Of a DNA stretch of 64,000 bases, positions 3,544 to 36,196 are shown piece by piece. This stretch comes from Lyophyllum atratum (Eukaryota > Basidiomycota > Agaricomycetes > Agaricales > Lyophyllaceae). The stretch spans positions 496,001 to 560,000 of the forward strand of contig JACGCN010000009.1 in NCBI GenBank assembly GCA_014905825.1. The letters run 5' to 3'. The translations under genes were made by a program, and so were the position numbers. The notes beneath the pieces were generated by a model, which was not told the origin of the DNA, made no database searches, and was given only the letters and a program-made list of their open reading frames with translations. Positions within the stretch are counted from its first letter, which is position 1; each line of letters begins with the position of its first letter.

Positions 3544-4023
3544 CACCACTCCCTAGCAGAGTGATATATCATATACCTCAATTGTATAACTTTTGGTCAT
3601 GTATCAAACCCTACAATATGAGACAAACATGATATATCACGTATTACAACAGCTCATCCACCTCAGCCACCTCAATTCAAGCTCAGCTGTCCCTCCCACA
3701 TTGCCGCCGCCCATCCCACCTATGTATATTTATAAATAGTCCCATCATCCCGCCCAGAATCATCCGCCATCATTCTGTCCACCCCTCCCCGCCATCATGG
3801 CCCGCAGATTTATAAATAGTCCTATCATCCCGCCAGAATCATCCGCCATCATTCTGTCCGCCATCACCCCGCCCCGCCATCATCGCCCCCTCTCGCCGCC
3901 ATCATTTCCCTTCGCCGCCATCATTTCCCCTCGCCGCCATCATTTTGCCCTGCCGTATCACTTCCAACTCTTTCTATTAATAACACTCATTTGCCATCAT
4001 TTCTACGGTCAGAGAGACAACAT
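3544..4023. repeat. KDZ-1 left subterminal region
   Basis: Non-coding end of the transposon. It holds GTGATATATCAT at 3561-3572 and ATGATATATCAC at 3629-3640, which are candidate transposase-binding palindromes. From about 3740 to 3960 there is a degenerate CCGCCATCAT microsatellite. The transposase gene ends at 4024 on the opposite strand. Confidence 0.8.
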
Positions 4024-7000
4024 TTATTCGTCCTTATCATCACATGGCTCCCAGCGTTGTAGAATTAAGGGGACCTCCGCCCAGTGAGCCTGAAACCGGT
4101 ATTTAAGCTTTAGTGCGAGAGCCGCCTGCTGCTGAGAATACGCAGCAACACCTTCCATGGTCATGGAATCCAGGCCCATCCTCCGACACCGCTGCTCCAG
4201 CCACCATCCAGCTTTCCATGAGAGGGTTGCCAGTACCCGACGCATTTCCTCCTGCAGTAGCTCGACTTCTTCAGCCCACCTCATTGCCCTAGCTCTGGCG
4301 CGACACCATTCGATCCGTAAACCTAAAGCTTGTTTTAGTACCTCCGCAACGGCCACATCATCAAGCGCTCACCATCGTTCAGCTGGGGATCCTCATCATT
4401 CACGGCAACCACCCCTGGAGCCGACCAGATCCAGGACGTAGTCTTGCTCCCCTCCGTCTCACCGAACATTCCCTCCGACAATGCTCGGATATCCGTATCC
4501 CTCAGTACCCGGATCGTGGTCTCCCAGACTGGTGTTTGTCGTCCCTGGGAAAGTACGACCAGTGCTTGGCGTGCTTTGCGGTATTTATTTGCAGCCCTTC
4601 TGACGGCCTCGTTCGCTGTACCAATGGCTACGTTGGAGCGGGTATTTGCTTTGACTCCGCGTGAGTATCAATCTTTGTGAGTATAAAGGTGAGAACGTAG
4701 TCGTAAGATGCGTCGAACCTCCTCCAGTGCGTCATTTGCCTGTCCTTCTCTCAACCTCCATTCGTACTCTTGCAGCGCCTCACTGACCACGATTCCCTCC
4801 TTCTTTAGGTCGGAAGGAAGCCATAACGGGATATCGTGGGCTTTTGTAGCAGGTAAGCCGTCCGGACCCACGTTCTGCATCGCTTTAGCTCGCTGCCTCG
4901 CCGCCTCTGGAAGAAATAGCATTTGGATCTCTATCCACGATGATATCTTGCGCCGAAGTTGATTGGAGCGCTCGAGAAGACTTGAGAGCTGGTTGGCTGT
5001 CGGATGATCACCCAGATCTGCGGTATCAGCAGCTAACTTGTGTCTGATCAGGGGGGCAGCTTAGCTATCATAGTCGCCAGAATAAGATGGATATCACATA
5101 CTGCTCATCTGCCAATGCGAGACCGTTTGCGATCATGACTGTCGGATGATGATCGTGGACATGCTCCGAGTTCTGATCGTTCAACCCTTCCTTCACTGCC
5201 ACCTCCTGCGCGAGCTTCAACCGCACGTCACGCTCTGACATCACTAAGGACAGCATCAGCGATTGAAGGGTACAAGTATCAGGAGGGAACAAATACCTTT
5301 GCTGTTCGATCTATAAGGATTCGCTGGCGGCTCCGGTTTCCAAGAATCCCTCTCCCATAAGTCGACCGCGTCGCCCCATAATTTGAAAACCTGGGGCGGG
5401 ATGCTGTTCTCAAGATCCCTCAACGCGGTCGCATACTCGACTCGTGCAGGTGCCGCTTCTTTCAGCTTCGTTAGCAAACGCGAGCCTTTTACTTCACATC
5501 AATAAATGCCAGAATGAATCAATAGACATAGCAACGCACCAAATTGAATAACCTTTTTCCAGTTCCAGTCGTTGAAGTGATCGTCGAGGGTGTCGCGTCG
5601 TGCCCCTGGACCCATTTCCTTTGTGCTTTGTGCGATTGGGTTGATGTTGGCCCACCCACGTTCAGGCGCTTCCCCGTCTGTCCTCCCGACGCCCTTCACC
5701 AGGTTGAATGAATACAGGATGTTGCAATCCTCGATATGGGCAGGTAGATGAAATTTTGGGACGAGGAAGGACATGTATTTCACGCTACCCGAGAGGTGAA
5801 TTTCATGTGGGTAGCTTAGCATTCGCTCACGTAGCTTTTTGTGCCATTGGCATACGATATTGTAGGATACTACGATTGTTTGGATATTTGTGTCGCGAAG
5901 ACTACTGAAAAAAAGGTAGTCCATATTCAAGTATCTAGGGCTCGGTTCAGGTGACTGATTCTGACGCACAGGTGCAAGACTTACCTTTCTCCTTTCTGTA
6001 AATCGCCGACCCCGAGTGGCCGTTTGAAATCATGGCGCGAGCAATCGATAGTTCCCGCGCCTGATGCTGCTAGACCCCGGGCCTCTCGATCTGGTTTGTT
6101 CACCGCATCGTGCGACACACAGTCACTTCGCTGGTGAGGGCTTTATTCAGATATGTATAGTGTAATAAAAACAGGTGACATACATCTTGCTTCTGATCCC
6201 AACGCGCCTTAAGATAGTCCTTGTAACCGGTTTCTTCGACAAAAAATGCCCAACCTCCCCCTAGACTAGGATCACGTTTGTCGGATGATACGATCTTCCG
6301 CTTGAGCCGAAAATTGGCATCCATCCCTATGAATAGCGCATAAAGATATCTAGAAATAGACAGATCAGCATTGAGTGAGTTCATGACAAGTAAAATTTAC
6401 TTTTTGTCTTCCGGCGCCATTTCCCAATTTGGTGGGAGGTTGATACCGGGTTGTGGGCATGCAGTACATGACACCGCACATTGACCCGGTCTTGTCGCGA
6501 TAATGCCGTCCGGTTCGTTCCCAATGGCAGCGCGTTTCAGCATCTTCAGGTGACGCCATTGACGGACCATCCACATGAACTCATCATATCGATCCTATTT
6601 TTGAGAAAATTGAGCTCGGGATTCTGATGTAAGGAGAATGACATACTCGAGGTACGTACAGACCGGTGTTATCGGTCTCTCGGGATATGGCACCGAAAAA
6701 CTCATAGGCGGAACATTTCGACTCGAAGGAAAGAAGCTGAAAGTGTTTGAGGCAGTTGAATGTTGTCGCTGTTTGTGGTTGAGTTGCGGTCGACGGATAA
6801 AGGCGAGCCCTCAAAAGCTGGAGGGGGTCGTCGATGGCTTGCTCGCATTTGCAGAAATCCAAGCCCACTTCATGAATGCCGTATGAGTCGACAACCACAA
6901 AGTCGTCACCTTTTGCGGGTTTCGGGTTAAGGCAACGTTGACCTGGCGGATGGTTCAATTGTATGCGAAGCCCCAGCTTCTTCAAAGTTTCGTCTTCGAA

Positions 7001-7671
7001 GAAAAAACCATTCCATTGCTAAGTACGCATTAGCATTTAGTTTAACACGCGAGAAGAAAAAAAGCATACCTCAATGCGGTGGAAAGGATTACGTGCATGC
7101 AATAACACCATACAGGGAGCACATAAGAGCGGACCAGGGAGACAGTCGACACAGCGGTATTTAGCGGGCAGGGGCTGACCACAAGGGCAACAAGTATTTG
7201 TATATTCACCCCGCCCTTCAAGGCGAAGGAACTCGTCGAGAAATACTTGGCGATCTAAGTCTACCCACGTTTTCATTGGATTTGGAGTGTCCTGTGAAGA
7301 TATCAGTCTAAGGAATGTTCAACACCTATAAGGACACGTACTAATGCTGAGCGGGTACGCTGTTTTGTCTGCAAGCCATGTTCTTGGTCCCATCCATCCC
7401 AATACCCTGGTTGCATAAACTCGAAGCCTTCCAACATATCCTCCGAAGACGAGACCCCTATGTTCCCGACACCGCGAACTTTCGATGGAGTAGTCGAGCT
7501 TTTCTTCGGGGAAGCGGCTCCAGCAACGGCGCCGGTTGTAGTTCTTGTCCCTCCATTAGAAATGACAGAGGTCGTATGGTGGAATAGGGTTTTTCGAGGC
7601 CGTGGGTCATCGTCCTCGTCCTCATCGCTGGTATCCGGGTACACCACAGACTGAACTTTGGGGCGCTTCAT
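4024..7671 (-). CDS. KDZ transposase with N-terminal CxC2 cysteine cluster (KDZ-1)
   Basis: Multi-exon minus-strand gene. N-terminus: MKRPKVQSVVYPDTSDEDED and a low-complexity linker (about 7671-7320; an upstream in-frame Met lies at 7836). Then a CxC2-type zinc cluster (CCPCGQPLPAKYRCVDC, LLCAPCMVLLHARNPFHRIE; about 7260-7060), and the CxC2 second half (GIHEVGLDFCKCEQ, LQLLRARLYPST; about 6985-6640). The RNase H-fold core follows: GMDANFRLKRK (about 6320), then SYNIVCQW (about 5850), VPKFHLPAHIEDCNILYSFN, and GRTDGEAPERGWANINPIA followed by RRDTLDDHFNDWNWKK. The C-terminal helical region (LRIEWCRARARAMRW, EEMRRVLATLSWKAGWW) ends at 4024. The conserved SYD aspartate, probably the second catalytic acid, is Asn here (codon AAT), so the enzyme may be inactive. 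Exon joins were inferred from the sister element and are not all proven. Confidence 0.88.
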
Positions 7672-7824
7672 GCGTGGAATAGGAGGCCCGAGATACCGGG
7701 TGCGTGCACGAGATAATTTCGATTGAATCACAGATTGTCGAATTAGCCGAAGGTCTCGGTTATAATAAGGTGCAAGTATCTGTCGGTGATATATCACAGC
7801 TTGAAATCCGTCCCCACTTACAGC
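7672..7824. promoter_or_regulatory. Divergent promoter between KDZ-1 transposase and Cys-rich gene
   Basis: About 150 bp separates the probable transposase start (7671, minus) from the start of the plus-strand Cys-rich gene at 7825. The two genes therefore must share a short bidirectional control region, unless the transposase uses the upstream Met at 7836. It contains one GGTGATATATCAC-like palindrome near 7785, similar to the subterminal repeats, so the transposase could bind its own promoter. That role is inference. Confidence 0.5.
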
Positions 7825-8297
7825 ATGGCTAAGCAAGCAATTGAGAAGCGCACCCCTGCCATAGAAGGTGAGTCACATTGTGCATTGTAACAGTGCTGGC
7901 ACTCACAGTCATAACTTTTAAACGTCAAGAAACGAAATCTGATGCAGAGGTAGGGAAGGAGGAAGAGGTCTCGGTGGAAAGCGTCGTGGATGAGCTGGAT
8001 CGGCTGAAGATAGAGCGGAATTGCGATTTCTGCGGGCGGCCGAAGGTCGCGAAGGGATGGGCCCTGTTTCCGGCAAAAGCATTGCGGGATCGCTTGAAGG
8101 AGGGGGAGGAAACTGTGGAATGGGAGGACTGGACCACGCAAAGGCGCCGCGTCGTCTGTAGGGCCTGTATTGAGGCACTGATCGACGAGGGAAAGGAGAC
8201 ATTCAGAGGGTTGCGCATAATAGATGCGTGGTGGCCGGAACTGGAGAAACCGGTCGGGTGGAAACACAGTGACGGATGGGAGGCCGATGAAAGTTAA
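7825..8297 (+). CDS. Small Cys-rich (CxxC...CxxC) protein, KDZ-1 cargo
   Basis: Two exons: MAKQAIEKRTPAIE, then a GT...AG intron ending at about 7929, then the main exon. The protein is about 136 residues. An acidic N-terminal helix leads to NCDFCGRPKVAKGWALFPAK, and about 45 residues later to VVCRACIEAL, a likely four-cysteine zinc site. A Trp-rich tail (DAWWPELEKPVGWKHSDGW) follows. It shares 'CDFC' and 'GW..FPAK' with the minus-strand gene at 12622-13307 of the same element, so the two look like paralogues. I do not recognise a named family. A DNA-binding or transposase-partner role is only suggested by its position next to the transposase promoter. Confidence 0.7.
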
Positions 8298-8387
8298 TCC
8301 GTACCCGATGATCTGCAAAAATGTATATTAGAATGATACCGTTGCAGCGCTTCTAACTCACCAAAGACCAACCCCCCTGACTCACGC

Positions 8388-8785
8388 ATGGCAGAATCAC
8401 AAGCGCCTGAAGGTAATACCGCGAACATTGAGCGCCGGCCGAAACTGACCAGCTGCTAGGAATGATGCGCTGCCGCTTTTGTCGCCCCGGTCCTCTGTCC
8501 ATCTCACAGAACAGTAACCGCCGCACGCGATCGCGTCATATCTGGGTAGATGTTGACGTGAACGAGCTATGTTCACAAGGTCTCCCCGCATACTGGAGCC
8601 GTTTCATTGACCAGCATGGAGTCGAAGGACTGATATGTTATCTGTGCCTGATGTTAGCATGGGAGGATCATATGGACTTTACCGTCGGACAAACGGGAAT
8701 GACGCACACGGCAGATTGGAGGAAAGAGATCTTAGCAGAGGGATGGGGACAGGGGCGTAAATCTAAATCTGGAAGTCGAGCTTAG
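8388..8785 (+). CDS. Second small Cys-rich protein, KDZ-1 cargo
   Basis: Start MAESQAPE in a short first exon (8388-8412), then an intron to about 8459, then MMRCRFCRPGPLSISQNSN and 49 residues later LICYLCLMLAWEDHMDF, ending at 8785; about 116 residues. CRFC and CYLC would form a four-cysteine metal site like those of the neighbouring Cys-rich genes, though the rest of the sequence has diverged. It lies 90 bp after the first Cys-rich gene on the same strand. Function unknown. Confidence 0.6.
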
Positions 8786-8929
8786 CCACGGCACATGCAC
8801 AGCACCTAATCATGACGTACCTTACACCATATGGTTCACTATTATTATGAATTTCGCCTTCTTAATAAACTGATTGGAAAAAGGCGAAGGCATATTTCAA
8901 AAAGAGTATAACAAATTGTCCGATGGTAA

Positions 8930-10690
8930 CTAACGATGGATTACAATACGACGAGCCCCAACCCTCCCAACCTTCGTGAACATGTCCAACCCCTTCTCCC
9001 ACCGACCAGCATCGATCTCCGCCTTCTCTGCAATGCCGGCGCGGGTGGAAATGAAGGAAGCGACTGTTTGGAAATGATACGAGACCCAGCGAAAGAGACC
9101 ACCCGCAGCATATTGAGTGAGTGATAGCCGTGTTTCGTCGGGGCCAACAGGGGTGTTGCCGTGTTCAACAGCACCCGAAGGGATAAGAGCGGTGGAGCCA
9201 GGGGGAAACTCGACGACGAGTTTCAGAGAATATAGAATAAGGTGTCCACCACGCTTAGAGTTGTACGAACCCATTGCGGTGAGGGCACAGAGACCATAAC
9301 AGAGATTACCTGCGTCAAAGTGACGACAGGTGCAAGTATGAGGACCACAGTTGAAGGTGCAGGCTGGAAAGATTGAATTATTGAAATTGTGTTCGAGATT
9401 GGGATGGTGTTGGAAGAGCGACTGGAGGATGTCCGCATAATAATTGTACAACTTGGGGGCGAAGGAAGCGAACGTGCCTGAAGAGTGTTGTCTTAGCATA
9501 GAATAGGGGAGGGGGACCGAGATGGGGAGGGGGAATCGTCTCCGATGAGGGGAGGGGGGGATGAATCACGCGTACTTGATTGAAAGCCCGCGATGCGACG
9601 GATGTTGCGGTCGGAAAGGAGACGCCGAACCAAGCGGCCGCATGGACCACTGTGAACAAGGTTGCCAGGTTTCTAGAAGATTTCCGTCAATGCGTTCGGA
9701 AGCGCATGGACCACATGGAGCACGTACCGTCTGGCCCCCTCCGTAAGATACTCCTGTCGCGAAGGCGGCAAAATTGCCCCGACGGTGGTTCACGTCGTCC
9801 TCGTTGATCGCATCTGTCCTGATTGCGTGTTCCCGGGCATCTTCCATCGCAGAGGTGGCTCCCGAGATGACGTCGTCCCAATGATCATCTTCAGGGCATC
9901 CAGGAAAGCCTGCGATGGCGCGTCCCTGGTCATCGACAATCGAGAAAGGCGTCCTACAAGAAAGGTTTGAGCATAGGAAAGTGAACGGAGACCTGCACAC
10001 GTACCTTCCGTCCCACTCCACCAGACCGAACCCTGCATCCAACAAGTCCTGCAGCTCATCTGGCTTCCGCGGAATCACCGTCTTCCCCATCTTCCCCTTC
10101 TTCCCCTTCTTCCCCCTCTGACCCTTCCCCCGTTTTCCCTTCTGTCTGAAAAACCCTGTCCATGCCCCTCCCTTGGTGTTCGGAAGTGTTGCCGCATTGA
10201 TCCCGGCCTTGAGCGGTGCCGAAAACAGTTGGGCTTTGGCGGATTTTGAGGTGCGGACTGGGCGGCTGAAAGGAGTTGCGGACACCGCCGCAAACGTCCG
10301 TTTCTTGCTGCGCTGGACTTTCTTGTTCATTGACTGACGTTGAGCTTCGATGGTACCAGCACGCGTGTTGGGATGTACGTGAACAGAGGTGGTGGAAGGG
10401 TGATGAATGTCAAGACCTTCGTGGGAGAATGTTGGGCCGTCTGTGAGGGGTGCGCCTTCAGCATCGTCGCCATCGGCGGGTTCCTGGAGCATGGCCCCAT
10501 GCATCAGGGTGTCAAAGCTATCAGAGATACGGACGGGAGGGCCGTGGTGAAGGGTGGGGCTGGTGACGGCGGAAACCCGATAGGGTGCGAAGTCATACGC
10601 CGAGAACGAGGCTCCTGAGCGGGTCTAGACCATGGTCAGCATATCTGACCATGAAAGAAAGAGTTTGTGCCTTACCTGACCGTGAGGCAT
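8930..10690 (-). CDS. TET/JBP-family 2-oxoglutarate/Fe(II) dioxygenase (KDZ-1)
   Basis: Predicted nucleic-acid-base dioxygenase. TET/JBP enzymes oxidise 5-methylcytosine or thymine in DNA using 2-oxoglutarate and Fe(II). The start MPHGQ at 10690 is split by an intron. The N-terminal half is low-complexity and basic (KRGKGQRGKKGKKGKMGK), consistent with nuclear DNA binding. It is followed by GFGLVEWDGR, GNFAAFATGVSYGGGQT and, after an intron, NLVHSGPCGRLVRRLL. The double-stranded beta-helix lies in the last exon (9499-8930): HFD (the HxD iron ligands) in CRHFDAGNLCYGL, then GGHLILYSLKLVVEFPPGST, the distal His in GAVEHGN, and the 2-oxoglutarate-binding Arg in DETRLSLTQY. All catalytic residues are present. 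The KDZ-2 copy has the same architecture. In mushrooms TET/JBP genes are expanded and often lie inside KDZ elements (established knowledge). Confidence 0.87.
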
Positions 10691-10790
10691 TGTTAGAGCG
10701 ATGATATGATCTAGTGCGAGGGATAAATGAGTCAGTATAAGGTACCCAGCAAAAGATGATGCAAAGAGGAGGCGGATCAGCACATACACC

Positions 10791-10889
10791 CGCCGTAGGG
10801 CCTGTGGCAAGTCCCAATGTACGGGCGCAGTGCGATAAAGGAAAGTAAAACCGCCGTAGGGCCTATGGCGAGTCCCAATGCACGGTCTC
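10791..10889. repeat. Short direct repeat upstream of the TET/JBP gene
   Basis: CCGCCGTAGGGCCTGTGGCA at about 10791 recurs as CCGCCGTAGGGCCTATGGCG at about 10852. Each copy is followed by AGTCCCAATG. Period about 61 bp, two copies, in the probable promoter of the minus-strand dioxygenase gene. Confidence 0.75.
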
Positions 10890-11289
10890 ACTCACCAGAG
10901 GGAATTTCGGAGGAAAGGTTTCGAAGTGCGCCATATCCAAAGGCGCTGCCATTTTATAGCCAAGAGCGGGAGTTTGAGAGCACGGGCCTGTCTAGGGAGC
11001 AGTGAGATGGCTAGGGGGCTAGGGGGCGGTGAGACGGAACAGGGTCATCGGCGCGGAAGAGGGGAGACGGGGAGAGATAAGGTCCAGATCCAACTTGCAC
11101 AATCGGTCCGGTCGCAATCATGTTCAGGGCAGGCTGACAATCTTATCTTATCTCATCTTATCGTCGCATTTCTATGAGAAACCTATCACAAACTCGGTGT
11201 TTATCTCTATCATAACTCACTTAGGCCGCCTAAGTATCAGAAACTGTCTATGGTTGCGGCAGTATGGTTACACCTTCCTGCATTTAATG

Positions 11290-12140
11290 ACTATCGCTGG
11301 CTGTAAGCCTCGTTCTATACACTTCTTTTGTATCTAACATATTTCAGGCAAATCCTACGTTCAGTTATCCCTTCAAACATTCAAGCTATCCTTCAAGTGT
11401 TATCCGTTCTGCGGTATCGTCGTTTTGCTAACCTTTCAGACATTCAGTTACACCGTCCAAGTCATTGAACGGCTATCACTGCATGTAAGTCTGGTTCTCT
11501 ATTCTCCCTTTGCATGCATCCGACTTTGTTCTTGTGAACCTACGTTTGGTTACACCCTCGAACATTCACTTAGCCCTCCGCCCTTTCGTCAACCCTTCAA
11601 ACATTCGGTTACATCGTCAAATCCGTCCAACAACTCTCCTTGCACATAAGTCTCGTTCCTTTGTCGCTTCACATGTATGTAACCTCGTTCAGGTCAATCC
11701 TACGTTTGTTTAACCCTTGGAACATTCACTTAACCCTCCGCCGTTTCGTTAACCATTCCAACATTCGGTTACATCGTCAAATCCGTCCAACAACTCTCCT
11801 TTCATGTAAGTCTCGTTCTTTTGTCGCTTCACATGTATCTAACCTCGTTCAGGTCAATCCTACGTTTGTTTAACCCTTCGGGTCTCGTTAACCCTTCAAA
11901 CATTCGGTAACACTGTCAAATCCATTCAACGACTATCGCCAGCTGTAAGTCTCGTTCGATTATGCCTTCTTATGCATCTAACCTCGTTCAGGTCAATCCT
12001 CCGTTTGTTTAACCCTTCGCCGTCTCGTTAACCCTTCAAACATTCGGTAACACTGTCAAATCCATTCAATGACTATCGCCAGCTGTAAGTCTCGTTCGAT
12101 TATGCCTTCTTATGCATCTGATCCCCTTCAGGCGTATTCT
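11290..12140 (+). repeat. Tandem array of 140-185 bp units carrying splice-like signals
   Basis: Five to six diverged units. Each contains TGTAAGTCTCGTTC, then about 30 nt later CTAACCTCGTTCAG|GTCAATCC, then TTTAACCCTTCG and AACATTCGGT. In the last units the GTAAGT-to-CAG interval is 47 nt with CTAAC 10-15 nt before CAG, exactly the shape of a basidiomycete intron. The interval between 'introns' is 92-93 nt in those units and has stops in all frames on both strands. No protein is encoded. It may be an amplified piece of a spliced transcript or simply a satellite. Confidence 0.8.
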
Positions 12141-12621
12141 ATGTTTGGGTTATGCCTGCGAACATTAAGTCACAGTCTCAAATGCATGCGACGACTTCTC
12201 AAGTTCAAGTCAATGTCTATCCACGTGTAATAGAACGTCCCTTAGGTTCATTCCGCATGCATTTAAGTGGAATGTCTCTCTGCGGGTGCTCAGCACCTCT
12301 TCGCTTGCTTTTCCTGTCAGTACTAATCATTTGTTCACAGCCAGACATCCGACACCCCATCTACCAGTTTCCCTACTTCTACGTCACCAGCCTCATCAGC
12401 TTTACCAGCGACTCCTGTGAGCGGCAAGGATTACAGTGCTAGGATTTGCAGGTTAGATGCCCGCCGGCTTTCACACTATCTCGGTAAGGTGTGCTCTACT
12501 CATTCAAAGATTCGACTGCTCATGTTCTTCTACATCCTTCTAGCTTATCTATACCTAAGCCGACGACTTTGAACAAATGAAACTAAGTTCGTGCCGCTAT
12601 TGAACAAATGAAACTAAATTG
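12141..12621. other. Non-coding spacer in KDZ-1
   Basis: No recognisable gene. A 16-bp direct repeat (GAACAAATGAAACTAA) occurs twice at about 12572 and 12602, just before the 3' end of the minus-strand Cys-rich gene. Confidence 0.5.
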
Positions 12622-13307
12622 TTATTTCTCGTCCGTCACCTCTCGGCCCACCACTTCTTCGCTGTTCTCTCTCTTTGCAGGGAAGACCCACCAACCAAGG
12701 CTTCGATCGTCGCATTCTCTGTGCGCCATCTCCAAACAATAGACACAGAGCTGGCGGTCTAACCCAAAGTAATCCACGCAGGGCAGTACAAAACGATCGG
12801 GATCGAGTATGCGGGACATGTCCAACTCCGGCAGAGCAGCTTCGATACGAAATGCCTCGGCGACACGAACACGGGTTTTATCCGAGACTCTGCCTATCAC
12901 TCGGGTACAGATAGTCCCAGTGCAGAAATCGCATCGTACCCAAGGTGCCGGCTTGGTTGGACCTGGTTTAGGGTATGAGTGTAATGCGATCACGTAGAAC
13001 CCTTTGCACCATACCTACGGGCCTGCGTGTTTCTTCATTATCGGATTCGTCGGCACTGGTTAGGGTGTCTTCCGACTGCGGCGATTCGTCGGCACTGTCT
13101 GTGGTGTCTTCCATGAAAGGCGATACTGGTGGGACGACTTCTGGCTGGGATGGGACCTCTGGCAGGTGAATATAATCCTTTTTCTTTGTGCGGGAGTTTA
13201 GAGATGATTGACGGAGATCCAGACCTTGATAGATGTCAGTTTTGATTGAGAAGAGATGAGTCTGCTGTCATACGTGGGCCTGTAGCTTTGGACTGATCTT
13301 TTGGCAT
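12622..13307 (-). CDS. Third small Cys-rich protein, KDZ-1 cargo
   Basis: Start MPKDQSKATGPR at 13307, an intron ending at about 13225, an acidic Ser/Glu/Asp-rich stretch (TTDSADESPQSEDTLTSADE), a second intron near 13010-12970, then a Cys-rich C-terminal exon. Cysteines occur in WVRCDFCTGTICTRV and QLCVYCLEMAHREC, and the tail is SLGWWVFPAKRENSE. The GWWVFPAK motif matches GWALFPAK of the gene at 7825-8297, but here it follows the second CxxC rather than the first, so the family may be circularly rearranged or only loosely related. Family name and function are unknown. Exon boundaries near 13000 are tentative. Confidence 0.6.
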
Positions 13308-13449
13308 GGGTATGTTGAAGGGCGTAAGTTTGAAAACTGGACATGATATCTATATATACCACCCAAATTGATCACGCATTGTGAACCATCTCGATCGATG
13401 TTACAGATTCAGTAAGGACTTACTAAATTACAAATTCTTGTTAACCCTC

Positions 13450-14008
13450 ATGTCTGAAAGTGCCAAATACCCTGCCTCTACTCAGGCTGCTCGCCGACAA
13501 GCCTCAAGCAACTACTACTATCGGTATGTGGACACACCTGGAACCCTCAACACATTTTACCTTACTTCTTACTAGAAACCGCGAGGCTTGCCGGGAGAGA
13601 GCTCGAGTCGCAGCTGCAAAACGTCGCGCAGAAAAGTAAGAAAAATTCCTTTGACCGTACCGAGCTCACCTACTCCTTAGGAAGCTAAAAGTCATAGCAG
13701 ACACACCCTCCTCGAAAGACGAAGCTGGCAGCTCTGCCCACGTGCCCCCTCGTCTGCGACATACTGCTCAGAATGAGTCGCTCAAGGCCGCTAGGGAGCA
13801 GGCCACTAGGGCAAAGTATGACCAATTCATGAAGAGTCACTATGTTCTTGACTACGCCTTAGCGGAGAGATCCCTCGGGTTTGTAGCTCCGTTTTACTGG
13901 CACTTGAGGCAAATCGGGCTGATATTTCATGCGCTTAGGAACTTCGAAGTTGCAGCCGAGATTGTGGACGAGTGGAACATCGCGCACCATCTCTTGCATG
14001 AGGAGTAA
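13450..14008 (+). CDS. Small basic 'YY...R-rich' protein (KDZ-1 core cargo)
   Basis: Three exons: MSESAKYPASTQAARRQ...NYYYR (13450-13523), NREACRERARVAAAKRRAEK (about 13576-13635), then a last exon from about 13681 to 14008; about 150 residues. The first half is a very basic helix with the pattern Y-Y-x-x-N/H-x-E-x-x-x-E-x-x-R-x-R, which recurs at the N-terminus of the KDZ-2 gene at 30148 (YYQKHPEVKEKNRERQRRRR) with an intron at the same place, after the YY. The C-terminal half (FMKSHYVLDYALAERSLG, YWHLRQIGLIFHALRNFEVA) is helical and not recognisable. A DNA-binding accessory role is plausible from charge and conserved position, but not shown. Confidence 0.7.
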
Positions 14009-14231
14009 AAAGGAGCAGATCGTGTTTCATATCGTAGAGTAAAATATTTACCATGACCGTCGCATGGTCTTGTTTTTCAATTTCAAATATAGACCCGATG
14101 TGAGATCAATCGGTCGGCTTTTATTGAGGCAGAATAAGTGATATATGACGTGCTTACAGTTGGATGAGCATAGGTAATATATTACATGTCTATGGGACAA
14201 CGAAGTCTCGCACATCGAATTCCTACCCCTC

Positions 14232-22861: not shown

Positions 22862-22866
22862 GGCCC
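22862..22866. repeat. 5-bp target-site duplication of copia element, right copy (GGCCC)
   Basis: Matches 3402-3406. Confidence 0.9.
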
Positions 22867-27000: not shown

Positions 27001-27777
27001 AGGGATGGGGCAAGAATCATCGAGAGGGTGACCTAGAAGGACTCGGAGGCCGATAGACTTCAGACTAGCTTTTTCGAAGTAAGTGCCTGTCCAACGCTGT
27101 CGAGGAAAATATTCAGGGACTAGGTAAAAAATGACAACGAAGAGAACGAACCTCGATTTCATGGAGGGGGTTGTGCCGATGCGTAGACACCATACACACC
27201 TGGCATAACAGGTGGCCGCCAGCGCAATCGACACATCGATATGATGCGTGGTGAAGCTCGGAGGTTTCTGTATGGCCAGGGCAGATATCAGGGTGGTCTC
27301 CACGCCCTTCAAGACGCAGAAATTCCGCGAGGTAAAGGTCCCGATCCGGTAGCCATTTTTTCAACTGGTTTATCTGGCAACGGTCGAGTGAGACGGTGAC
27401 GAGTGTGAAAAATTGGAATGTACTAACACGAACTCTTGCACGCTTCGCAGTGACTCTCTCAGCCTCCACTTCAGCGACATAGGCGGGATCGAGGGTAGGA
27501 TCGAGGGTAGCGTCGGCATCCAGAGATGAGAAATGTTCTGCAGATTGGTCGTTCCAAAGGGCAGGGTCGTCCGCCGGAGGCACTACGGTAGAAAGTGCTT
27601 GATGCGGAGTGGGAACATTGAAGACGGTGGTAGAGGTACTGTACGCGTTGGCTTGTGGGGGGAGGCGATAGCGGGTTGAGATGATGGTAGATTGGGAAGG
27701 GGTTTGGGTTTCATCAGAGGCCACAGCAAACATCCCCCACGACGACGAGCCTTCTTTCTTGGGTGGTGTGTTGACAT
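24009..27777 (-). CDS. KDZ transposase with N-terminal CxC2 cysteine cluster (KDZ-2)
   Basis: Multi-exon minus-strand gene. CxC2 cluster: FLRLEGRGDHPDICPG, YRCVDCAGGHLLCQVCMVST, HRHNPLHEIE (27330-27150), then GIHEVAVDFCGCQQ and TENTGVSPPK. The core has all three predicted catalytic acids: LAIDANFRLKRK (about 26400), VVSYDIVCQW (about 25940) and GRTDGEGVERGWSHINPVA followed by RRDTLDDHFGDWNWKK (to about 25620). The C-terminal helices reach the stop at 24009, with an acidic end (EKGDDDAEEEQ). The conserved-looking start MSTHHPRKKARRRGG at 27777 is out of frame with the downstream MFAVASDETQTPS by one base, at a run of five Gs (27733-27737). This may be a frameshift, a sequencing error, or a sign that translation starts at the MFAVAS Met (27733). 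Otherwise it appears intact and is the better candidate for an active enzyme. Confidence 0.88.
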
Positions 27778-27892
27778 TGACGCTAAGGGAGAAGGAAAGG
27801 GCACTGCTGCGTCAATGTGGAATCGAGGTCCCGGTTCGACGGCATCGGACACTGTCCATGTGGATTGTGCATCAGGTACTTTCAAATTCGAC

Positions 27893-28174
27893 GGCATCGG
27901 GCAACTCACATGAACATCAGACAAATACTGCCCGAACAAACGATTCAGAAGTGGTGCATCCATATGCACCGCTGGTGCAAATCAAATAATCTGATCAGAT
28001 TTTAAAAATAGAAGTACGATAAGCATATGCATTCGTTGGCATCGGACAACTCACATGAACATCAGACAAATACCGCCCGAACGAACGACTCAAAAGTGGC
28101 GCATCCACATGCACCGCTGGTGGAAATCAAATAATCTGATCAGATTTTAAAAATAGAAGTACGATAAGCATATG
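27893..28174. repeat. 137-bp direct duplication between KDZ-2 transposase and TET/JBP
   Basis: Copy 1 at 27893-28029 and copy 2 at 28038-28174, both starting GGCATCGG and ending GATAAGCATATG. They differ at a few percent of positions. The array lies just upstream of the minus-strand transposase gene and downstream of the dioxygenase stop, so it may double a promoter segment. Confidence 0.9.
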
Positions 28175-28177
28175 TAA

Positions 28178-29749
28178 TTACAGCCCCAAGTTCCGGAACA
28201 CTGCCTTCCGGTCCCTCGCTAGCTCGTGGAACTTGGAAAAAAAATTGAACCCCTGACCTCGACTCACATTCATCGCCTTCATCCTCGCCTGCCAAGTGTG
28301 AGGATGCGACTCCTTGATGGACGCATCAGTGACACAACCGTGGCTCACCCAACGAAGTAGACCTCCTGCACAATACTGAGTGAAAGATACGCGCTCCTCA
28401 CCAGGCTGGATGGCGGTGTTGCCGTGGCGAAGGAGGGCGGAAGGTATGAGGATCGTGGAACCACGCGGAAACTCGATGATCAATTTCAAGTCGTATAGAA
28501 TCAAATGACCACCGCGTTTCGAATCGAAATGCCCCCCAACGGTCACAGCGCACAGATTGTACCTGGAGTTCTTGCCGTCGTTGTGGAGTACCGTGACGGT
28601 CTCCGGACCGAGGTTGAACGTTCCAGCCGGGTAAACCGAGGAGGAGAAGTTCGCTTGGAACTGATCTCTCTTCTTGCCTGCAAACATGAGCACGGCTAGG
28701 TGGACCGCGATGTCTTCGTATATGCGTGGGGCGATATATCCGAGAGCTTCTGTAGTAAAACCAAAACCATTTGATATGTATTCATAGTAGATAATTACAT
28801 AGTTCACATACGGGACTGGAAAGCCGCTACGCGTTCAACATGGTCGTTGAGGAGGAGGCTATCGATGAGCTGTTGCTCCTCGCGTGTGTGGACAAGGTTT
28901 TGTGGCTCCTGGAAGGGTTTCGAAAAGTCAGTTAGATAAAGTTAAAGAACAGCGTTGAACTCAGAACGTACCGTCTGGCCACCGCCAAAGGATATCCCAG
29001 AGGTCAAGGTAAAATAATTACCACGAGGATGTGACCCAGCAACAGGTGAGAATGTACCCGAGGCCTGGCCGATGAGACGCACAGCCTTCAGGGCATGTTC
29101 GAAGCCCGTCACGACGTCGGACCATGGTCGCGACTCGCTAGTCGCCGATTCGCTAGTCGCCGATTCGCTATCGTCCCCATCCCCGTCGTCGCTGTCGTCC
29201 GAGACGAGGCCGGGCATGTCGGACGTGTCTAGCGTGTCCATACGACTGTCGAAATCGTGGGAGAAGTTGTTGGATGGGTGTTGGGGTGCGGGAACGGCTG
29301 GCACGCCTGCTAGGAGCCCGAAGATGCGTGCATCTGTGTCTAAAAGAGCATAGGGGGTACTTTATGATCATTAGCCTAATCAAAAATGTTTCTAAGTAAG
29401 TAAAGAACGCACATGCCATCCCACTTGAAAAGCCGGTAACCACCCTCCTTCCTGAGGTCCTGTAGTGTCGGTACTACTTCGGAGTTTGTTGGGACATCGG
29501 GCATGGTCCAGCCGCTGGTGCGCTGGGGGAGATCATCGAGGTTGAAGGAGGTTTGGATGGTGCCGAGCGGCTCGACGGTGGGCGGTGAAAGAAAGGGTCC
29601 AAGGTTCGGATGATCTGTTTTCGGAAATTGATGATCAGCGTGGCAAGTCGGTCCGAGATAAACAATGACGTACGTAGGCCTCGATGGTCCTGAAACCGCA
29701 ACCCAGAGTTGGTACAGCCTGGAGCGGCTTCGAAGTGGAGGCGAGACAT
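28178..29749 (-). CDS. TET/JBP-family 2-oxoglutarate/Fe(II) dioxygenase (KDZ-2)
   Basis: First exon MSRLHFEAAPGCTNSGLRF (29749-about 29672). The next exon carries TVEPLGTIQTSFNLDDLPQ and EGGYRLFKWDGM (to about 29413). Then an acidic Ser/Glu region, RGNYFTLTSGISFGGGQT, NLVHTREEQQLID and the catalytic C-terminal exon. Iron ligands: HND in VLHNDGKNSRYNL and His of LLRHGN. The 2-oxoglutarate Arg is in GEERVSFTQY, and the family core GGHLILYDLKLIIEFPRGST is complete. It lacks the Lys/Gly-rich stretch of the KDZ-1 copy. Expected nuclear activity is oxidation of modified bases in DNA. Position directly after the transposase gene on the same strand matches KDZ-1. Confidence 0.87.
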
Positions 29750-30147
29750 TTTTTGTCAGGAAAGGTGGGAGGAAAAGGTGGGAGACAGAAAAAAGGTGGG
29801 AGACTAAAGAATCAAATTTAAAGAACGAGGTTGCTCACCGTGTGTGTGCAACCATATGGGTGAGATCATCGAAATCGAGATTGATGTCTCGGCAAATTAG
29901 AAAATTAAGGTTGCTGATGCGTGTGGTTGCTGACCTTCCCGCGTTTCCAACTTAGCATGTGGGCGTGGCGTACAAGGAAATGCTCCTTAGATTGGTTGGA
30001 AATCACGGTACACAACCGCAAGAATAGTACATACTGGTAGTGTTGCGTACATTTAAGTCGGAAACATTCGAACACCACCTTTCACCACCTTTTCACACGC
30101 CGGTTGCACGTCGGTAAACTTAGAAGTGGGAAATTCAAAGTCCAAAT

Positions 30148-31326
30148 ATGACTACGAGTAACACCAAGGCGACACTGAAGAAAGGAAAAGACGGCTTGAC
30201 CAAGTATCAGCGCTATTATCAAAAGTATGTACCGTATTCTTGTTATTATTCATTTAATTAACTCGATATTCGTAGGCATCCAGAGGTGAAAGAAAAGAAC
30301 CGGGAGCGACAGCGTCGTCGTCGTGAGCTAAAATCACAGAAGGATGCTGCACCATCCACAATTGCCAGTACCGAACCTAGCGTACAGATTTCTGAATCGA
30401 CCATGCTCCCTCCCCCCACAGAACCCGTCCCAGTATCTGAGCTTATGTCCCCCCTTCCCGACTCGTCTGAAGAGTCCTCCACCGACTCTTCCACTTATGA
30501 ACTCTTGACACAAGATATCGCTGTCGAAGACGGGCCGCACACCACGGATACAGCAGCGGCCGAGCTCGACATCGAGACCCATAATCCCCCCCACTCCCTC
30601 CCGTCGGACTTCCACCGCACCAAGTCCATTCACCCGGAAGCACTACTGGGTAACATGATCAACAACCTGGTTGACTATGATGGAAAGAAGCCTTACCCGA
30701 CGCAATACCTTGAGCTTGATGTCCTCCTGAAATTACATACAGCAGTTTTGAACTGGGCTAACGGATGGGGAGGTGTCACGTACTGGAGCATTGGGCTGGA
30801 TAAGTCGTTCAACCTGGCAGTGGAGGAGCGCCGTGTGGAAGTTTGGCGAGCACAACTGCATAATCACGCGGCGCGAGGACGCCGCATGCTCAGCCGACTA
30901 CACTTCATGGATGGAGACTTACCCCTGGAGATGTGGAAAATACGAGAGTTGTGGCGGATCCAGATTGAATTGGTGGAGATCCTCGTCAAAGGCATCACCA
31001 TTCTGGAACTCAAGACCTCGATTCTCCCAAGCCTCTGCACAGTGGTATATGCTGAATCAGACAGCGCTGTCGAAACTGATGGTGGTGAAACCGATAGTGG
31101 TGACGAAGGGGAGGACGAGAACGAGAACGACGACGACGACAACGACGAAGACGAGGACGAGGACGAAGATGAGGACGAGGACGAGGGGAACGACAATGAC
31201 AAGGACAATGACGAGGGCGAGAACAACGACAACGGCAACGAAGTCCAGGGCGGCTATGTGTCAGATGACGAGTCCCATCACGAATGGTACTGTATGGGTA
31301 TGCACGAGGGACCATGTGTATACTAG
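30148..31326 (+). CDS. Basic 'YY...R-rich' protein with acidic tail (KDZ-2 core cargo)
   Basis: Exon 1 MTTSNTKATLKKGKDGLTKY then QRYYQK (30148-30224), intron to about 30276, then HPEVKEKNRERQRRRRELKS. About 370 residues. The N-terminal basic helix and the intron after YYQK match the KDZ-1 gene at 13450. The middle part has a Ser/Thr/Pro-rich linker and a helical segment (LLKLHTAVLNWANGWGG, EVWRAQLHNHAARGRRMLSR, MWKIRELWRIQIELVE). The C-terminal 80 residues are almost wholly Asp/Glu/Asn repeats (31070-31230), followed by HHEWYCMGMHEGPCVY. I do not recognise a named domain. A basic N-terminus joined to an acidic tail is common in chromatin-associated proteins; this is only a suggestion. Confidence 0.75.
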
Positions 31327-31450
31327 CTTCAGTACAACTTAGAATTCAAGACCGCGATGAAGGGAACGGCGTCTATTGCTGTGCACAGCAGGCTACAAAC
31401 GGCGAAGATGTATGTACGTCTACATACATACACAGTGAGGGAGATATGAT

Positions 31451-32419
31451 TCAAGCTGCAGCGGCCCCAGCGGCAGGGGGGGGTGGAGGAGGACCGGAAG
31501 GGCCGGGAGGGTGAAGCTGGTCCCTTCCCACATCGAAGGTGATCTTGTACACCTTGCCAAGGGCAAGAGCCTCGTCGTACGCTGCCTGTGCCTTCGCGTG
31601 CGTCGCATAGCGTTGGGCAAACCCACCTGGGACACCTGTTGCGTTGCCCGCGAGATTTTGCCTAACGAGTTTGATTAGGGTGCGATCCAATCATGAGACG
31701 AGGATATACATACGATCCGCGATGCACTCCGGGATTTCGGCCAGAAATCACGGCATACCAGCGATCATCGGCAGGACCTTCCGCCTCAGGCTGAGCACTC
31801 GTGGTGGTGACTGCAGGCGGGGGGATGGGGTCTGATGGTAGGTATATTAGACATGCGGTGCACATGAAGGGATAGGGGTTACTTACCGCCTAACTCGGAG
31901 GGAGTGGGTGTTTGCGTCCAATCGCTCAGGGTGCTGCTCGCAACGGAGATCGCATCCGAGTGGAAGTCCGGATCAGCGAGATCCGGCACGCGAATTGGAT
32001 CTTCTGTTTAAAAATAGAATTTGAATTTAAGCATTAACCTATTTTGAGGTGTGATGATCAGACGTACGTTCCAGAACGAGATAGCCCATGCGGGCACACA
32101 TGTCTCGAAGTTGCTGAGGCAGATCTGCTTGCGGGACAGCGCTATACCCCATTGCGAGGGCGACCTCTGAAAATAAACGGTAAGCAGTGAGTAGCAAGTA
32201 TGAGATCCAAGTACATACCGTTGGGGATGGGCACGCGAATATGAACAAGAGCTGCACATGAACGGTTAGGAACGACGTAGCTAGAACAACACTGACAGAC
32301 ATACCATCTTGAGCGGTCCGTAATGCCATGGCGAGGACGCGGAGGGCTTCAGCAGTTCCTGAACACGAGGCGCAAGGCCTCCGTCCACCAACTGCCTGCT
32401 TTCCTTTGTCGTCGGTCAT
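31451..32419 (-). CDS. RNase H1 N-terminal (Cauli_VI-like) domain protein, KDZ-2 cargo
   Basis: Start MTDDKGKQAVGGRRPCASC at 32419, several short exons, stop at 31451. After an N-terminal helical part (MGYSAVPQADLPQQLRDMCA) and a Pro/Thr linker comes DDRWYAVISGRNPGVHRGS, and after an intron GVPGGFAQRYATHAKAQAAY then DEALALGKVYKI. This is the pattern of the small RNase H1 N-terminal domain that binds RNA/DNA hybrids or double-stranded RNA (WYAV..GR.PGV ... G..G....Y.T...A..A...A). No RNase H catalytic domain follows; the tail is poly-Pro/Ala. Stand-alone copies of this domain are numerous in agarics. Its presence only in KDZ-2 marks it as variable cargo. Confidence 0.72.
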
Positions 32420-32689
32420 GTCGAAAGAGAGAGTAGATGGTGATCTGGGTTTCACTTAACATCGATCAAATGAGGTGGCTATTTATCTTATTGGAATGGA
32501 GTTTACCGAGGTGTGGTCGTGCTTGAGCGTTCAGGTGCCTCCTTCCTTACCATGTGTCAGAGGAGCATCATGGGACATTGTTATGAAATTCGGGAATCGG
32601 AATGTGAGGGAGGACCGAGAGGAAGGAGGAGTATGTCAATATGAGAAATAGATCGATATGGTTAATCCCTCACCTTCAGTGTCGCTTCT

Positions 32690-34963
32690 ATGGGTGGTCA
32701 ACGCTGGACTACTGATGAAGAACTTGCCTGGCTGCAGTCTAAGCTACCTGCATATCACGAGTCCAGGCGACGCGACCGAGTCTCGCGCTTTTTTACATCT
32801 CTTATCGAGGACTGGTTCCAGGAGTGGCCTGAGGAAGGGCGGGTCTTCCCCGATATCGACAAAGGCGAGCTGGATGCAGATCAAAAGCAAAAAGTCAACA
32901 AGGCGGTCAAAAAGCGCAGGAATGTACGTGTGACTAACCTATTTCGGTATACGAGACTGACTGCGATGCAGCAATTACGCGCGTGGATGATGCGCTCTGT
33001 AGGGAAGGAGACGCGGTCAACGGCATCCGACTTCAAACAGCTCATGCAGGTGGTGAAGAAAAATCAGCCTCGAAAGCGAACTCTCCAGCGTGTAGAGGTC
33101 TACCAAAAGTATTTTGGTGATAAGAAGAAGATAGCGGCCGCCGTTGAGGAGGCCATGAAAACCGCTACCGAGGAAGACACGGTGATGGGTATCCGTCGTA
33201 AGGTAGTCGTGAAATTCTTGGACCAGGAGCCGCCAGAGATACACGCCGAGGTTGACGCGAAGGCAGAGGAGCTGAGGGGGCAGAGGCAGGCCGAGGTTGA
33301 GACGCTGAAGAAGATAGAGAACGATGAAGAGGCTGGCGCTGCGAGAACACCGTCTCAGTACCACGAGTACGTCGTTGAGGATTTATTACTGCTCACTGAA
33401 CTCACGACATCCTTCAAAACACAGGGCAATCAAATCACTTCCTGCAATGCTCGCCGCTGCGATGCGGCCCCTGGCAGACGCGACAGGATGGGTCTTTTTT
33501 GTTTCGGCTGGTGGTCCTAATCCTGACGTGCATGGGACAATCTTTATGGAGTCGTATGTGCTCATTACTCTGTCAGACCATTGTCAACTTCTAATCTCTT
33601 TCCAGGTTCTACTATGGGCGTACCTCGGAAGTTGGAAATGACTTTCAAGACTCGTACTTAGCGTTTGACGAGAACGTACAAGATCCCTTTGGTAAACATG
33701 TGTCGAATTGCTTCCGTATGTATCCCTACTCTAGCTTGGTGTGAGTCCATAGCGCTGACCGTAACTTAAGCCCCAGAAGTTCGTCTCGAGCGCGCATTAC
33801 CCCATAAAGGCATGCAACCAGTGGGCAAATCCAAGGCCTATGATGTAACGGTCGGTATACCACGCGTAGATACAGAGTTAGACTCACAAGTTGTGGTGGA
33901 TGCGCCCTACCGAATGGATAGCATAGAGCCACCCTCGGACGACGACAAAACCCATGACAGCGACGGCAGCAAAGGGTCTGATGGATCAAGATCAGATGAC
34001 GATGAGGAAGAAGACTTCGGGCCTGAACCGACGCACCTGGTCGCCCGCGCGTCCCCGACGCCTCCTCCACACACGCCTCCCCCTCCTCCATCTTTGCCTC
34101 TGCCTCCCCCTCAACCAACGCACCCAGTCGCCCGCGCATCCCCGACGCCTCCTCCACACATGTCTCCCCCTCCTCCGTCTGTGCCTCCCCCTCCCCCTCC
34201 CTCTCAACCGTTCGTACCTCTGCCTCCCCCCCCGTCTGTGCCGACTATGTTCCCAAATGCTCCAGGCGGGCCGAGCTCCCCGATCGAGCATGCATTTCGA
34301 CGCATGGGCCTTCCAGCTGAAGACGCGCGTCATGATGATCATGATGCAGATGAAGGGTTCCTTGATCCGCAGTTCCGAACACAGCCTCTGATTCCTCCCC
34401 CCATCCCACCACTCGACAGCGCAATCCCGGAATCCCTGGCCTCTTCCCAACCTTCGATCCCTCCTCCTCACCCTCCTCCTCCCCCTCCCCCTCCCCCTCC
34501 TCCCCCTGCTCCTCCCCCTATCCCTCCCCCGCCACCCAAGCCAGCAGCAGTGAAACATACCAAATCAAAAAAGAAGGCACCGGCACGCGGGAAAAAAGGT
34601 CAGGTGTCTGATCAAGATCAAGACTATCTATTAGCCGGCGCGACAATCTCCGAACCCCTCGTGGTTAACCAGCCAACCGACAAGCCTCCAGAACTCACAC
34701 GCGCTGAGAAGGCCAAGGCGACACGACAGGCCAACAAGGAGAAGGCCAAGGCGTTGGAGGAGGTACGAAAGGAGAAGGAGAAGGTAACCGGGCGTCGCGA
34801 GCGCGTTCCGGTACGCCATCCTGATGGTGAGGTCATCGAACAGCCGTGGGCGAACTCCCATAGATCCGCTGCCGCTGCCGTGCCTGACCCTGAGTCCACC
34901 GTTCCCGCAAAGCGAAAGAAAGCAGCGGCCTCTGGGAGTAAGTCCAAGAAGCCCAAGAAGTAG
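32690..34963 (+). CDS. Large uncharacterised WF..W / AGGP / LAFDE protein (KDZ-2 core cargo)
   Basis: Homologue of the KDZ-1 gene at 14232. In order: RWTTDEELAWLQSKLPAY, FFTSLIEDWFQEWPEEGR; after an intron QLRAWMMRS, LQRVEVYQKYF and a charged helix; after another intron ATGWVFFVSAGGPNPDVHG; then FYYGRTSEVGNDFQDSYLAF-DENVQD. The C-terminal half has a long Pro-rich region (34060-34540) and a basic tail (KRKKAAASGSKSKKPKK) like a nuclear signal. The KDZ-1 copy has Gly/Arg-rich sequence where this one is Pro-rich, so only the N-terminal and AGGP modules are conserved. Function unknown. Its conservation in both elements argues for a role in the transposon life cycle. Confidence 0.77.
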
Positions 34964-35066
34964 CTGTAGATAATATCTGTTAGTAGATACTTGGAAATAT
35001 ACATGCCTTGGGCGTACTTGATATGATTGGATGCATAAATGTTGATGGTACCCCTCACAAGGAATA

Positions 35067-36060
35067 TCAGCCTGAACATCTTATCTTATCAGGTTGCTGA
35101 TAACGACTTAGAAAAAATTGCTCGAGTGCAAAATCTGTCGGATTGGGATTAGGCAACATAAAATAGACTATGGAGGGGAGAGACGACACAGGGAACAGTA
35201 ATAACATGATTATAGACTTTATAAGATATCTATATGTAAGTGAGTGGCTGGGTACAGGATACCAAGTGCGTGCAGTAGTACCCGGTAGGCCGGCCAAAGC
35301 AGGATCCAAGCCATGGATCGACGAAGAAATTGGCATAGCACACCTAGATATGTATGCCATAGTCGTATCGCAACGTAGGATGCTCGATTGAGGGTGGAGG
35401 CCGCCCCGAATGCGGAGGGACCAGAGGAGGAGGAGGAAACCGGGTAGGTGGTAAGCGGTCCCCGAAAACGGAATGTTTTGCTCGCTGTACCGGTCGACGA
35501 CCTGGGCCCATTGCGTAGCTGGGCATGTAGAGGCGCGGAGTGCTGTATCGAGGGGGGAAGCCGCCCCGAGCGCAGGGGAACCCGGAGGAGGAGGAGGGTT
35601 TCGGGTAGGGTAAGCGACGACCAAAAAAGGAACGATTTGATCGCTGTCCCAGACGACGAGCGGAGCGGAACCGGAGGTGTACCGGTCGACGACCTGGGCC
35701 CATTGCGTAGCTGGGCGTGTAGAGGCATGGAGTGCTGTATCGAGGGTGGAAGCCGCCCCGAGCGCAGGGGAACCCGGAGGAGGAGGAGGATTTCGGGTAG
35801 TGGTAAGCGACGACCGAAAAAGGAACGATTTGATCGCTGTCCCAGACGACGAGCGGAGCGGAACCGGAGGGGGAGGAGGATTTCGGGTAGTGGTAAGCGA
35901 TGACCGAAAAGGGAACGATTTTGATTGCTGTACCAGACGACGAGCGGGGCCTATCAAGTGGCGGTGCACGTGGGGGGGGCGGTGCGGCTGGCGGGAGCAA
36001 CCGAAACAGTGGCGGTGCACGTGGAGGGCGCGGTGCGGCTGGCGGGAGCAACCGAAACGA
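35067..36060. repeat. Minisatellite region in KDZ-2
   Basis: From about 35395 to 35955 a unit of about 192 bp is repeated (for example CGGTCGACGACCTGGGCCCA at 35491 and 35683), with a shorter derivative near 35840-35930. At 35958-36057 a GC-rich unit of about 48 bp containing GGTGCGGCTGGCGGGAGCAA occurs twice. Long open frames on both strands here (one of 317 codons on the minus strand) are products of the repeat and resemble no known protein. Confidence 0.8.
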
Positions 36061-36196
36061 GGTGGGGAAAGGAGGGTTCGCGAACCTATTCGCGAACCCT
36101 CCCTCTAAGGGTCGTCCTTGTGATCAGAGGAACGTTCGCGAACCCTGTTTGATCTCATCAGAAGATGGGTTCGCGAATTATTGGTTACATAGCCTG
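36061..36196. repeat. KDZ-2 right subterminal region
   Basis: TTCGCGAA palindromes at 36078-36085, 36090-36097, 36135-36142 and 36170-36177, several extended to GGTTCGCGAACC. The last one is 19 nt from the tip, the same as on the left end. Confidence 0.85.

What the first reader, a model, noticed from the sequence alone, without database searches (positions are those of the whole stretch)
3544..36196. Two diverged KDZ elements share a four-gene core: transposase, TET/JBP, basic YY protein, WF..W/AGGP protein
Order and strand are conserved (-,-,+,+), although protein identity and non-coding sequence have diverged. KDZ-TET/JBP association is known. The constant presence of the two uncharacterised plus-strand genes suggests a complete functional module, perhaps DNA demethylation plus transposition accessory factors, rather than random capture.
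Basis: partly seen in the sequence, partly recalled or inferred. Interest (0 to 1): 0.88.

Follow-up and report, generated by a model that had tools for sequence, protein, structure and literature searches.

The report
Mushroom transposons with constant partner genes
Two large jumping genes in a mushroom genome carry the same two unstudied partner genes as their relatives in that genome, while the DNA-demethylation-like gene beside them is often missing, which points to the partners as working parts of the jumping machinery.

Summary
Confirmed and sharpened. Window 3544-18329 (A) and 23521-36196 (B) are two Kyakuja-type KDZ transposons with exact ends: 7-bp target duplications, CA..TG ends, CxC2+KDZ transposase, TET/JBP-like dioxygenase. 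Both carry a small basic "YY" gene and a "WF..W/AGGP" gene on the other strand. In the one genome searched (inferred: Lyophyllum atratum), each of the 30 AGGP loci found has a YY gene just upstream on the same strand; 26 of 30 show the order KDZ-YY-AGGP, divergent, within 12 kb (27 of 30 lie near any KDZ, against 14 of 124 Copia loci). AGGP and transposase have co-diverged (Mantel r 0.95, 15 elements). TET lies between in 16 of 26 and was not detected in three lineages. Neither family matches Pfam; an AGGP model holds an HMG-box-like domain, which fits the "divergent HMG" partner I recall from Iyer 2014 (not held). Best explanation: AGGP and YY are DNA-binding transposition partners acting on lineage-specific subterminal palindromes, TnpA-like. 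B also holds a fifth gene with an RNase H1 N-terminal domain. Function is inferred.

The parts
3544..18329 (.). Element A, Kyakuja-type KDZ transposon with both ends, 14,786 bp, CACCAC...GCCTG
   Evidence: 7-bp TSD ATTAGAG; removal of A plus one TSD gives a Copia LTR 229/229 identical to its other LTR
3537..3543 (.). Left target site duplication of A (ATTAGAG)
   Evidence: sequence
18330..18336 (.). Right target site duplication of A (ATTAGAG)
   Evidence: sequence
4027..7872 (-). Transposase of A: CxC2 (in 6587-7018) and KDZ (in about 5502-6396); outer limits of ORF pieces, exon model not made
   Evidence: Pfam CxC2 E 4e-43, KDZ E 4e-42; ORFs
8933..10624 (-). TET/JBP-like 2OG-Fe(II) dioxygenase of A; outer limits of ORF pieces
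   Evidence: Pfam Tet_JBP 21.3 bits, below cut-off 34.9; HxD...H conserved
13450..14008 (+). YY_A, 153 aa, exons 13450-13523, 13576-13635, 13681-14008
   Evidence: copies
14232..17004 (+). AGGP_A, 851 aa, exons 14232-14516, 14571-15094, 15151-15279, 15331-15437, 15494-17004
   Evidence: copies
3562..3639 (.). Left subterminal TGATATATCA sites of A (2)
17341..18239 (.). Right subterminal TGATATATCA sites of A (6); one more site inside at 7787
   Evidence: 9 in A against 0.013 expected by base composition; none elsewhere in the window
23521..36196 (.). Element B, Kyakuja-type KDZ transposon with both ends, 12,676 bp, CACCTG...GCCTG
   Evidence: TSD GACTCGC; copy on C2 with identical ends and TSD ACGGTGA
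23514..23520 (.). Left target site duplication of B (GACTCGC)
   Evidence: sequence
36197..36203 (.). Right target site duplication of B (GACTCGC)
   Evidence: sequence
24371..27811 (-). Transposase of B: CxC2 (in 26698-27360) and KDZ (in about 25581-26521); outer limits of ORF pieces, exon model not made
   Evidence: Pfam CxC2 E 5e-42, KDZ E 1e-40; ORFs
28181..29834 (-). TET/JBP-like dioxygenase of B; outer limits of ORF pieces
   Evidence: 42% identical to TET of A, HxD...H kept; no Pfam match of its own
30148..31326 (+). YY_B, 375 aa, exons 30148-30224, 30276-31326
   Evidence: homologs in Crassisporium and Tephrocybe
31454..32419 (-). Fifth gene of B with RNase H1 N-terminal domain (PF01693); outer limits of ORF pieces
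   Evidence: pieces joined by hand across a presumed intron: 21.2 bits against cut-off 21; the single exon piece 13.3; ORFs
32690..34963 (+). AGGP_B, 684 aa, exons 32690-32923, 32972-33366, 33425-33553, 33606-33715, 33777-34963
   Evidence: 86% identical protein in Crassisporium funariophilum
23540..23647 (.). Left subterminal TTCGCGAA sites of B (4)
36077..36177 (.). Right subterminal TTCGCGAA sites of B (4)
   Evidence: 8 in B against 0.19 expected by base composition, all within 127 bp of an end, none elsewhere in the window

Best explanation
A and B are two old lineages of Kyakuja-type KDZ cut-and-paste transposons with a fixed three-protein core: the CxC2/KDZ transposase, AGGP and YY. Shown in this genome: the gene order, its constancy, the co-divergence of AGGP with the transposase, and purifying selection on AGGP. 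Inferred: AGGP is a DNA-binding and bending partner (HMG-box-like middle domain, perhaps an HTH-like N-terminus, basic tail) and YY a basic nuclear partner; they recognise the lineage-specific palindromes packed at the ends, help the transposase pair and cut the ends, and perhaps control its promoter, as TnpA does with TnpD in En/Spm (recalled). The TET gene, and in some lineages an RNase H1 N-terminal-domain gene, are exchangeable cargo, probably against silencing, that is not needed for transposition itself.
Confidence: 0.6

Rival explanations
1. AGGP and YY are anti-silencing or regulatory factors (like the sequence-specific anti-silencing protein of plant Vandal elements) rather than transposition partners: they bind the element's own motifs and keep it transcribed, with TET where present.
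For: Fast divergence of AGGP (A-B 23% against 58% for KDZ) and lineage-specific motifs fit a factor that follows its own sites; Vandal anti-silencing is described in the introduction of PMC12730594.
Against: Constancy across the lineages with or without TET is more than expected of an optional anti-silencing gene; element A's motif has no CpG.
Confidence: 0.22
2. One reading: all four genes form one demethylation-plus-transposition unit.
For: TET lies in the same slot and orientation in 16 of 26 elements and its catalytic HxD...H is kept.
Against: 10 of 26 elements in three lineages show no TET by three searches; a direct look at one element each of lineages C and D found none. Very diverged TET genes could still be missed.
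Confidence: 0.1
3. YY and AGGP are passenger host genes or TE-island neighbours without function for the element.
For: KDZ loci lie in regions where Copia is also over-represented (14 of 124 within 12 kb against 2.3% of the genome).
Against: Fixed order and strand in 26 of the 27 loci near a KDZ, location inside exact TSD-bounded copies, co-divergence and purifying selection.
Confidence: 0.03

Closest known systems
TET+ Kyakuja DNA transposons of Agaricomycetes (Kojima 2025, PMC12730594, main text parts 1-5 of 7 read)
   Same: KDZ transposase, 7-bp TSD, 5'-CA..TG-3' ends, no TIR, TET/JBP gene, agaric host
   Different: The parts read do not describe YY or AGGP partners or subterminal palindromes; figures and supplements were not seen. 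It treats TET+ families; here TET-less sister lineages keep the other genes
KDZ elements with additional proteins including a divergent HMG domain (Iyer et al. 2014 PNAS; abstract recalled, paper not held)
   Same: AGGP is probably that HMG-type partner, judged from the predicted fold
   Different: Cannot be checked here; whether YY, TET-less lineages or co-divergence are treated there is unknown to me
Cryptococcus KDZ1-KDZ3 (PMC12810828, passages)
   Same: KDZ transposase, 9-11 kb
   Different: They have 139-241 bp TIRs, 4-8 bp TSDs and a CxC1 cluster; A and B have no TIR, 7-bp TSD and CxC2
En/Spm (CACTA) TnpA/TnpD system (recalled)
   Same: Transposase plus second element-encoded protein; clustered subterminal binding sites
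   Different: No relation of the proteins is claimed; palindromic motifs rather than TnpA's motif; function here only inferred

Membership tests
Kyakuja-type KDZ transposon | KDZ transposase domain | tested here: met
   PF18758 E 4e-42 (A) and 1e-40 (B)
Kyakuja-type KDZ transposon | 7-bp target site duplications | tested here: met
   ATTAGAG (A), GACTCGC (B), ACGGTGA (B copy on C2); the C97 copy of B shows none
Kyakuja-type KDZ transposon | CA..TG ends without terminal inverted repeats | tested here: met
   CACC...CCTG in both; first 30 against reversed last 30 bases match at 15 (A) and 18 (B) positions, no continuous TIR
Kyakuja-type KDZ transposon | Transposase groups with Kyakuja rather than Dileera or Zisupton | not tested
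   No named reference transposases at hand; only separation from 7 other KDZ loci of the genome was tested
TET/JBP dioxygenase (Pfam Tet_JBP) | Score above the Pfam cut-off | tested here: not met
   21.3 bits against 34.9 in A, no match in B; 4 of 6 copies match at E 0.1 or better
TET/JBP dioxygenase (Pfam Tet_JBP) | HxD and distal H of the Fe(II) triad | tested here: met
   H82, D84, H135 invariant in 6 copies including A and B
AG-type TET | Gly/Ser and Asp at the CcTET 331 and 337 positions | tested here: inconclusive
   Counting from HxD gives Asn and Cys in A and B, but CcTET itself was not aligned
HMG-box protein (AGGP middle domain) | HMG-box fold | tested here: inconclusive
HMG-box protein (AGGP middle domain) | HMG-box sequence profile | tested here: inconclusive
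   No HMG model among the families listed for 13 domain sequences (filters drop most matches above E 0.1); no HMG chain in a PDB profile search at E up to 10
RNase H1 N-terminal domain protein (fifth gene of B) | PF01693 above cut-off | tested here: met
   21.2 bits against 21 for hand-joined pieces of B, only just; 46.2 for hand-joined pieces of the C84 gene

The most novel reading that the evidence does not exclude
Kyakuja elements are built from a fixed three-protein transposition machine (CxC2/KDZ transposase, HMG-box-like AGGP, basic YY) that reads its own subterminal palindromes, plus exchangeable slots for counter-silencing genes: TET against DNA methylation in the slot beside the transposase, and an RNase H1 N-terminal-domain protein, possibly against RNA-based silencing, in the slot between YY and AGGP. 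Lineages combine these differently (A: TET only; B: both; E: RNase H1-type only), and AGGP may guide TET to the ends.
Probability: 0.2. Interest if true: 0.8.

Novelty: new variant of a known kind. Interest (0 to 1): 0.55.

Why it matters
TET-like genes are numerous in some mushrooms and their role in transposons is open. Separating a constant core from optional cargo gives a direct test: which proteins move the element, and which only protect it from silencing. If AGGP and YY are obligatory partners, transposition assays or genome annotation that use the transposase alone miss part of what makes these KDZ elements move, and a family of agaric "hypothetical proteins" gets a role.
Full report
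What is in the window. The window lies in a 64.76 Mb, 151-contig genome. Its contig C13 is 1,772,675 bp long, and two YY-family proteins named Lyophyllum atratum come from a contig of exactly that length, so the host is inferred to be L. atratum, an agaric. Element A (3544-18329) and element B (23521-36196) are bounded by perfect 7-bp duplications. A is inserted in a Copia element: removing A and one ATTAGAG gives an LTR identical over 229 of 229 bases to the other LTR, with GGCCC on both sides of the Copia. Identical LTRs suggest a young Copia, and A is younger still. A copy of B on contig C2 has the same ends and its own duplication, ACGGTGA; the C97 copy has both ends but no matching duplication, and for the C67 and C13 copies only one end was found in the fetched stretch.

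Genes. Both transposases carry CxC2 and KDZ. The dioxygenases keep HxD and the distal histidine but score below the Pfam cut-off in A and not at all in B, so they are called TET/JBP-like. AGGP is a five-exon gene in both, with the same intron phases. YY is a small gene whose first exon, of 24 to 28 whole codons, ends in a phase-2 intron in the elements of lineages A, B, D and E that I modelled; beyond that motif the lineages hardly align, so YY is one family by motif, intron and position rather than by overall similarity. Neither AGGP nor YY shows a Pfam domain that I would trust.

Genome-wide association. Loci were clustered by hand: 65 KDZ, 30 AGGP, 25 YY, 80 TET-like and 124 Copia (recounts them); searches added 8 YY loci, 33 in all. 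Within 12 kb of a KDZ hit lie 27 of 30 AGGP, 29 of 80 TET and 14 of 124 Copia loci; KDZ neighbourhoods of that size cover 2.3% of the genome. For the C72 AGGP locus the nearby KDZ belongs to another element, so 26 of 30 have a KDZ in the expected place. All 30 have YY upstream on the same strand; 26 show KDZ-YY-AGGP with KDZ divergent; TET lies between in 16 of 26, always on the KDZ strand. The exceptions are C141:1116k and C72:437k (TET, YY, AGGP, but no transposase in the 8-9 kb fetched on that side) and two AGGP copies on C61, whose likely transposase lies about 35 kb off. Of 33 YY loci 30 have AGGP and 29 have a KDZ within 12 kb; the three without AGGP are C119:15k, C77:607k and C57:21k. 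Counts are lower bounds, as the tool scores only best candidates, and the queries came from KDZ elements.

Lineages, as I sort them: A type (7 ordered elements, with TET), B type (9, with TET), C (2), D (3) and E (5), the last three without detected TET. In C and D this was checked directly in one element each. In E (C84) the slot beside the transposase holds a different unidentified gene. A further arrangement on C72 at 439-452 kb has KDZ minus, TET plus and a very diverged AGGP gene plus, found by eye and supported by hhalign (97.5%, E 6e-12); so some KDZ loci counted as AGGP-free may not be. 38 of 65 KDZ loci had no AGGP in 12 kb. Seven of these were compared: they are three distinct sequences, 24-35% identical to the element KDZ domains, set apart by a branch with support 1.000, and without a match to the CxC2 region in the 2.4-3.7 kb held. 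The other 31 were not examined one by one. The association is thus with one branch of KDZ, as far as sampled.

Co-divergence and selection. Across 15 elements with both pieces at hand, pairwise identities of KDZ and AGGP correlate at r 0.95, permutation p 5e-5. Near-identical copies and elements without a fetched KDZ piece were left out, and some sequences are partial (C109 KDZ, C1 AGGP). AGGP dN/dS is 0.34, 0.16 and 0.36 in the three pairs with dS below 1; five other pairs are saturated and give 0.09-0.18; of seven YY pairs two, between A and the transposase-less copies, give 0.63 and 0.67, four give 0.18-0.31 and one could not be computed.

A fifth gene. Between YY and AGGP on the opposite strand, B has a gene whose hand-joined pieces reach 21.2 bits against a cut-off of 21 for the RNase H1 N-terminal domain; the equivalent in the E element on C84 reaches 46.2; the C72 piece reaches 18.3, below the cut-off, and the D candidate on C119 has no match. 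Its role is a guess.

Other species. AGGP relatives were found in Crassisporium funariophilum (86% to B), Mycena vulgaris, Infundibulicybe gibba and Tephrocybe rancida; YY relatives in Crassisporium (72 and 84%), Tephrocybe and three unnamed records. In Crassisporium an AGGP piece (P0003) and a YY protein (P0008) come from contigs of the same length, 718,464, which suggests linkage there too. No other genome could be searched for context.

Known or new. PMC12730594 (parts 1-5 of 7) describes TET+ Kyakuja elements with the same ends and duplications and does not mention these partners in the parts read; its figures and supplements were not seen. [quoted passage not shown] I recall that Iyer's abstract mentions a divergent HMG protein; the paper is not held. 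So the existence of an HMG-type partner is probably known, while the constancy of AGGP plus YY, the optional nature of TET and the co-divergence are what these data add. I found no description of them in searches, which cover only part of the literature and of which only a few papers were opened.

Noticed in passing
window 31454-32419 (-); L051 460-957 (+) and following exon; L014 4921-5325 (-): A gene with an RNase H1 N-terminal (PF01693) domain lies between YY and AGGP, opposite strand, in B and in the E element on C84; a sub-threshold candidate lies beside the AGGP gene of the C72 element. Possibly a second kind of counter-silencing cargo.
   Followed up: partly
P0001, P0007, P0008 against window B: AGGP and YY of element B are 86% and 72-84% identical to proteins of Crassisporium funariophilum, a different suborder of Agaricales: a candidate for horizontal transfer, not tested against host genes.
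   Followed up: no
window 3407-22861: Copia element with identical LTRs and GGCCC duplications, its 5' LTR split by element A; both insertions look recent.
   Followed up: yes
L010/L011 (C141:1103-1121 kb) and L012/L013 (C72:422-438 kb): A-type copies that keep TET, YY and AGGP but show no transposase in the fetched 8-9 kb on the expected side.
   Followed up: partly
L051 2322-3024 (+), C84: An unidentified spliced gene with a WF..YP motif sits on the transposase strand where TET lies in A and B.
   Followed up: no
G000 C97:86721-98784: A B-type locus with duplicated TET and YY pieces, ends present but no matching target duplication.
   Followed up: no
window 42811-43548 (+), 46582-47511 (+): Ordinary host-type genes beside the elements: sucrase/ferredoxin-like and PhzF-like.
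   Followed up: no
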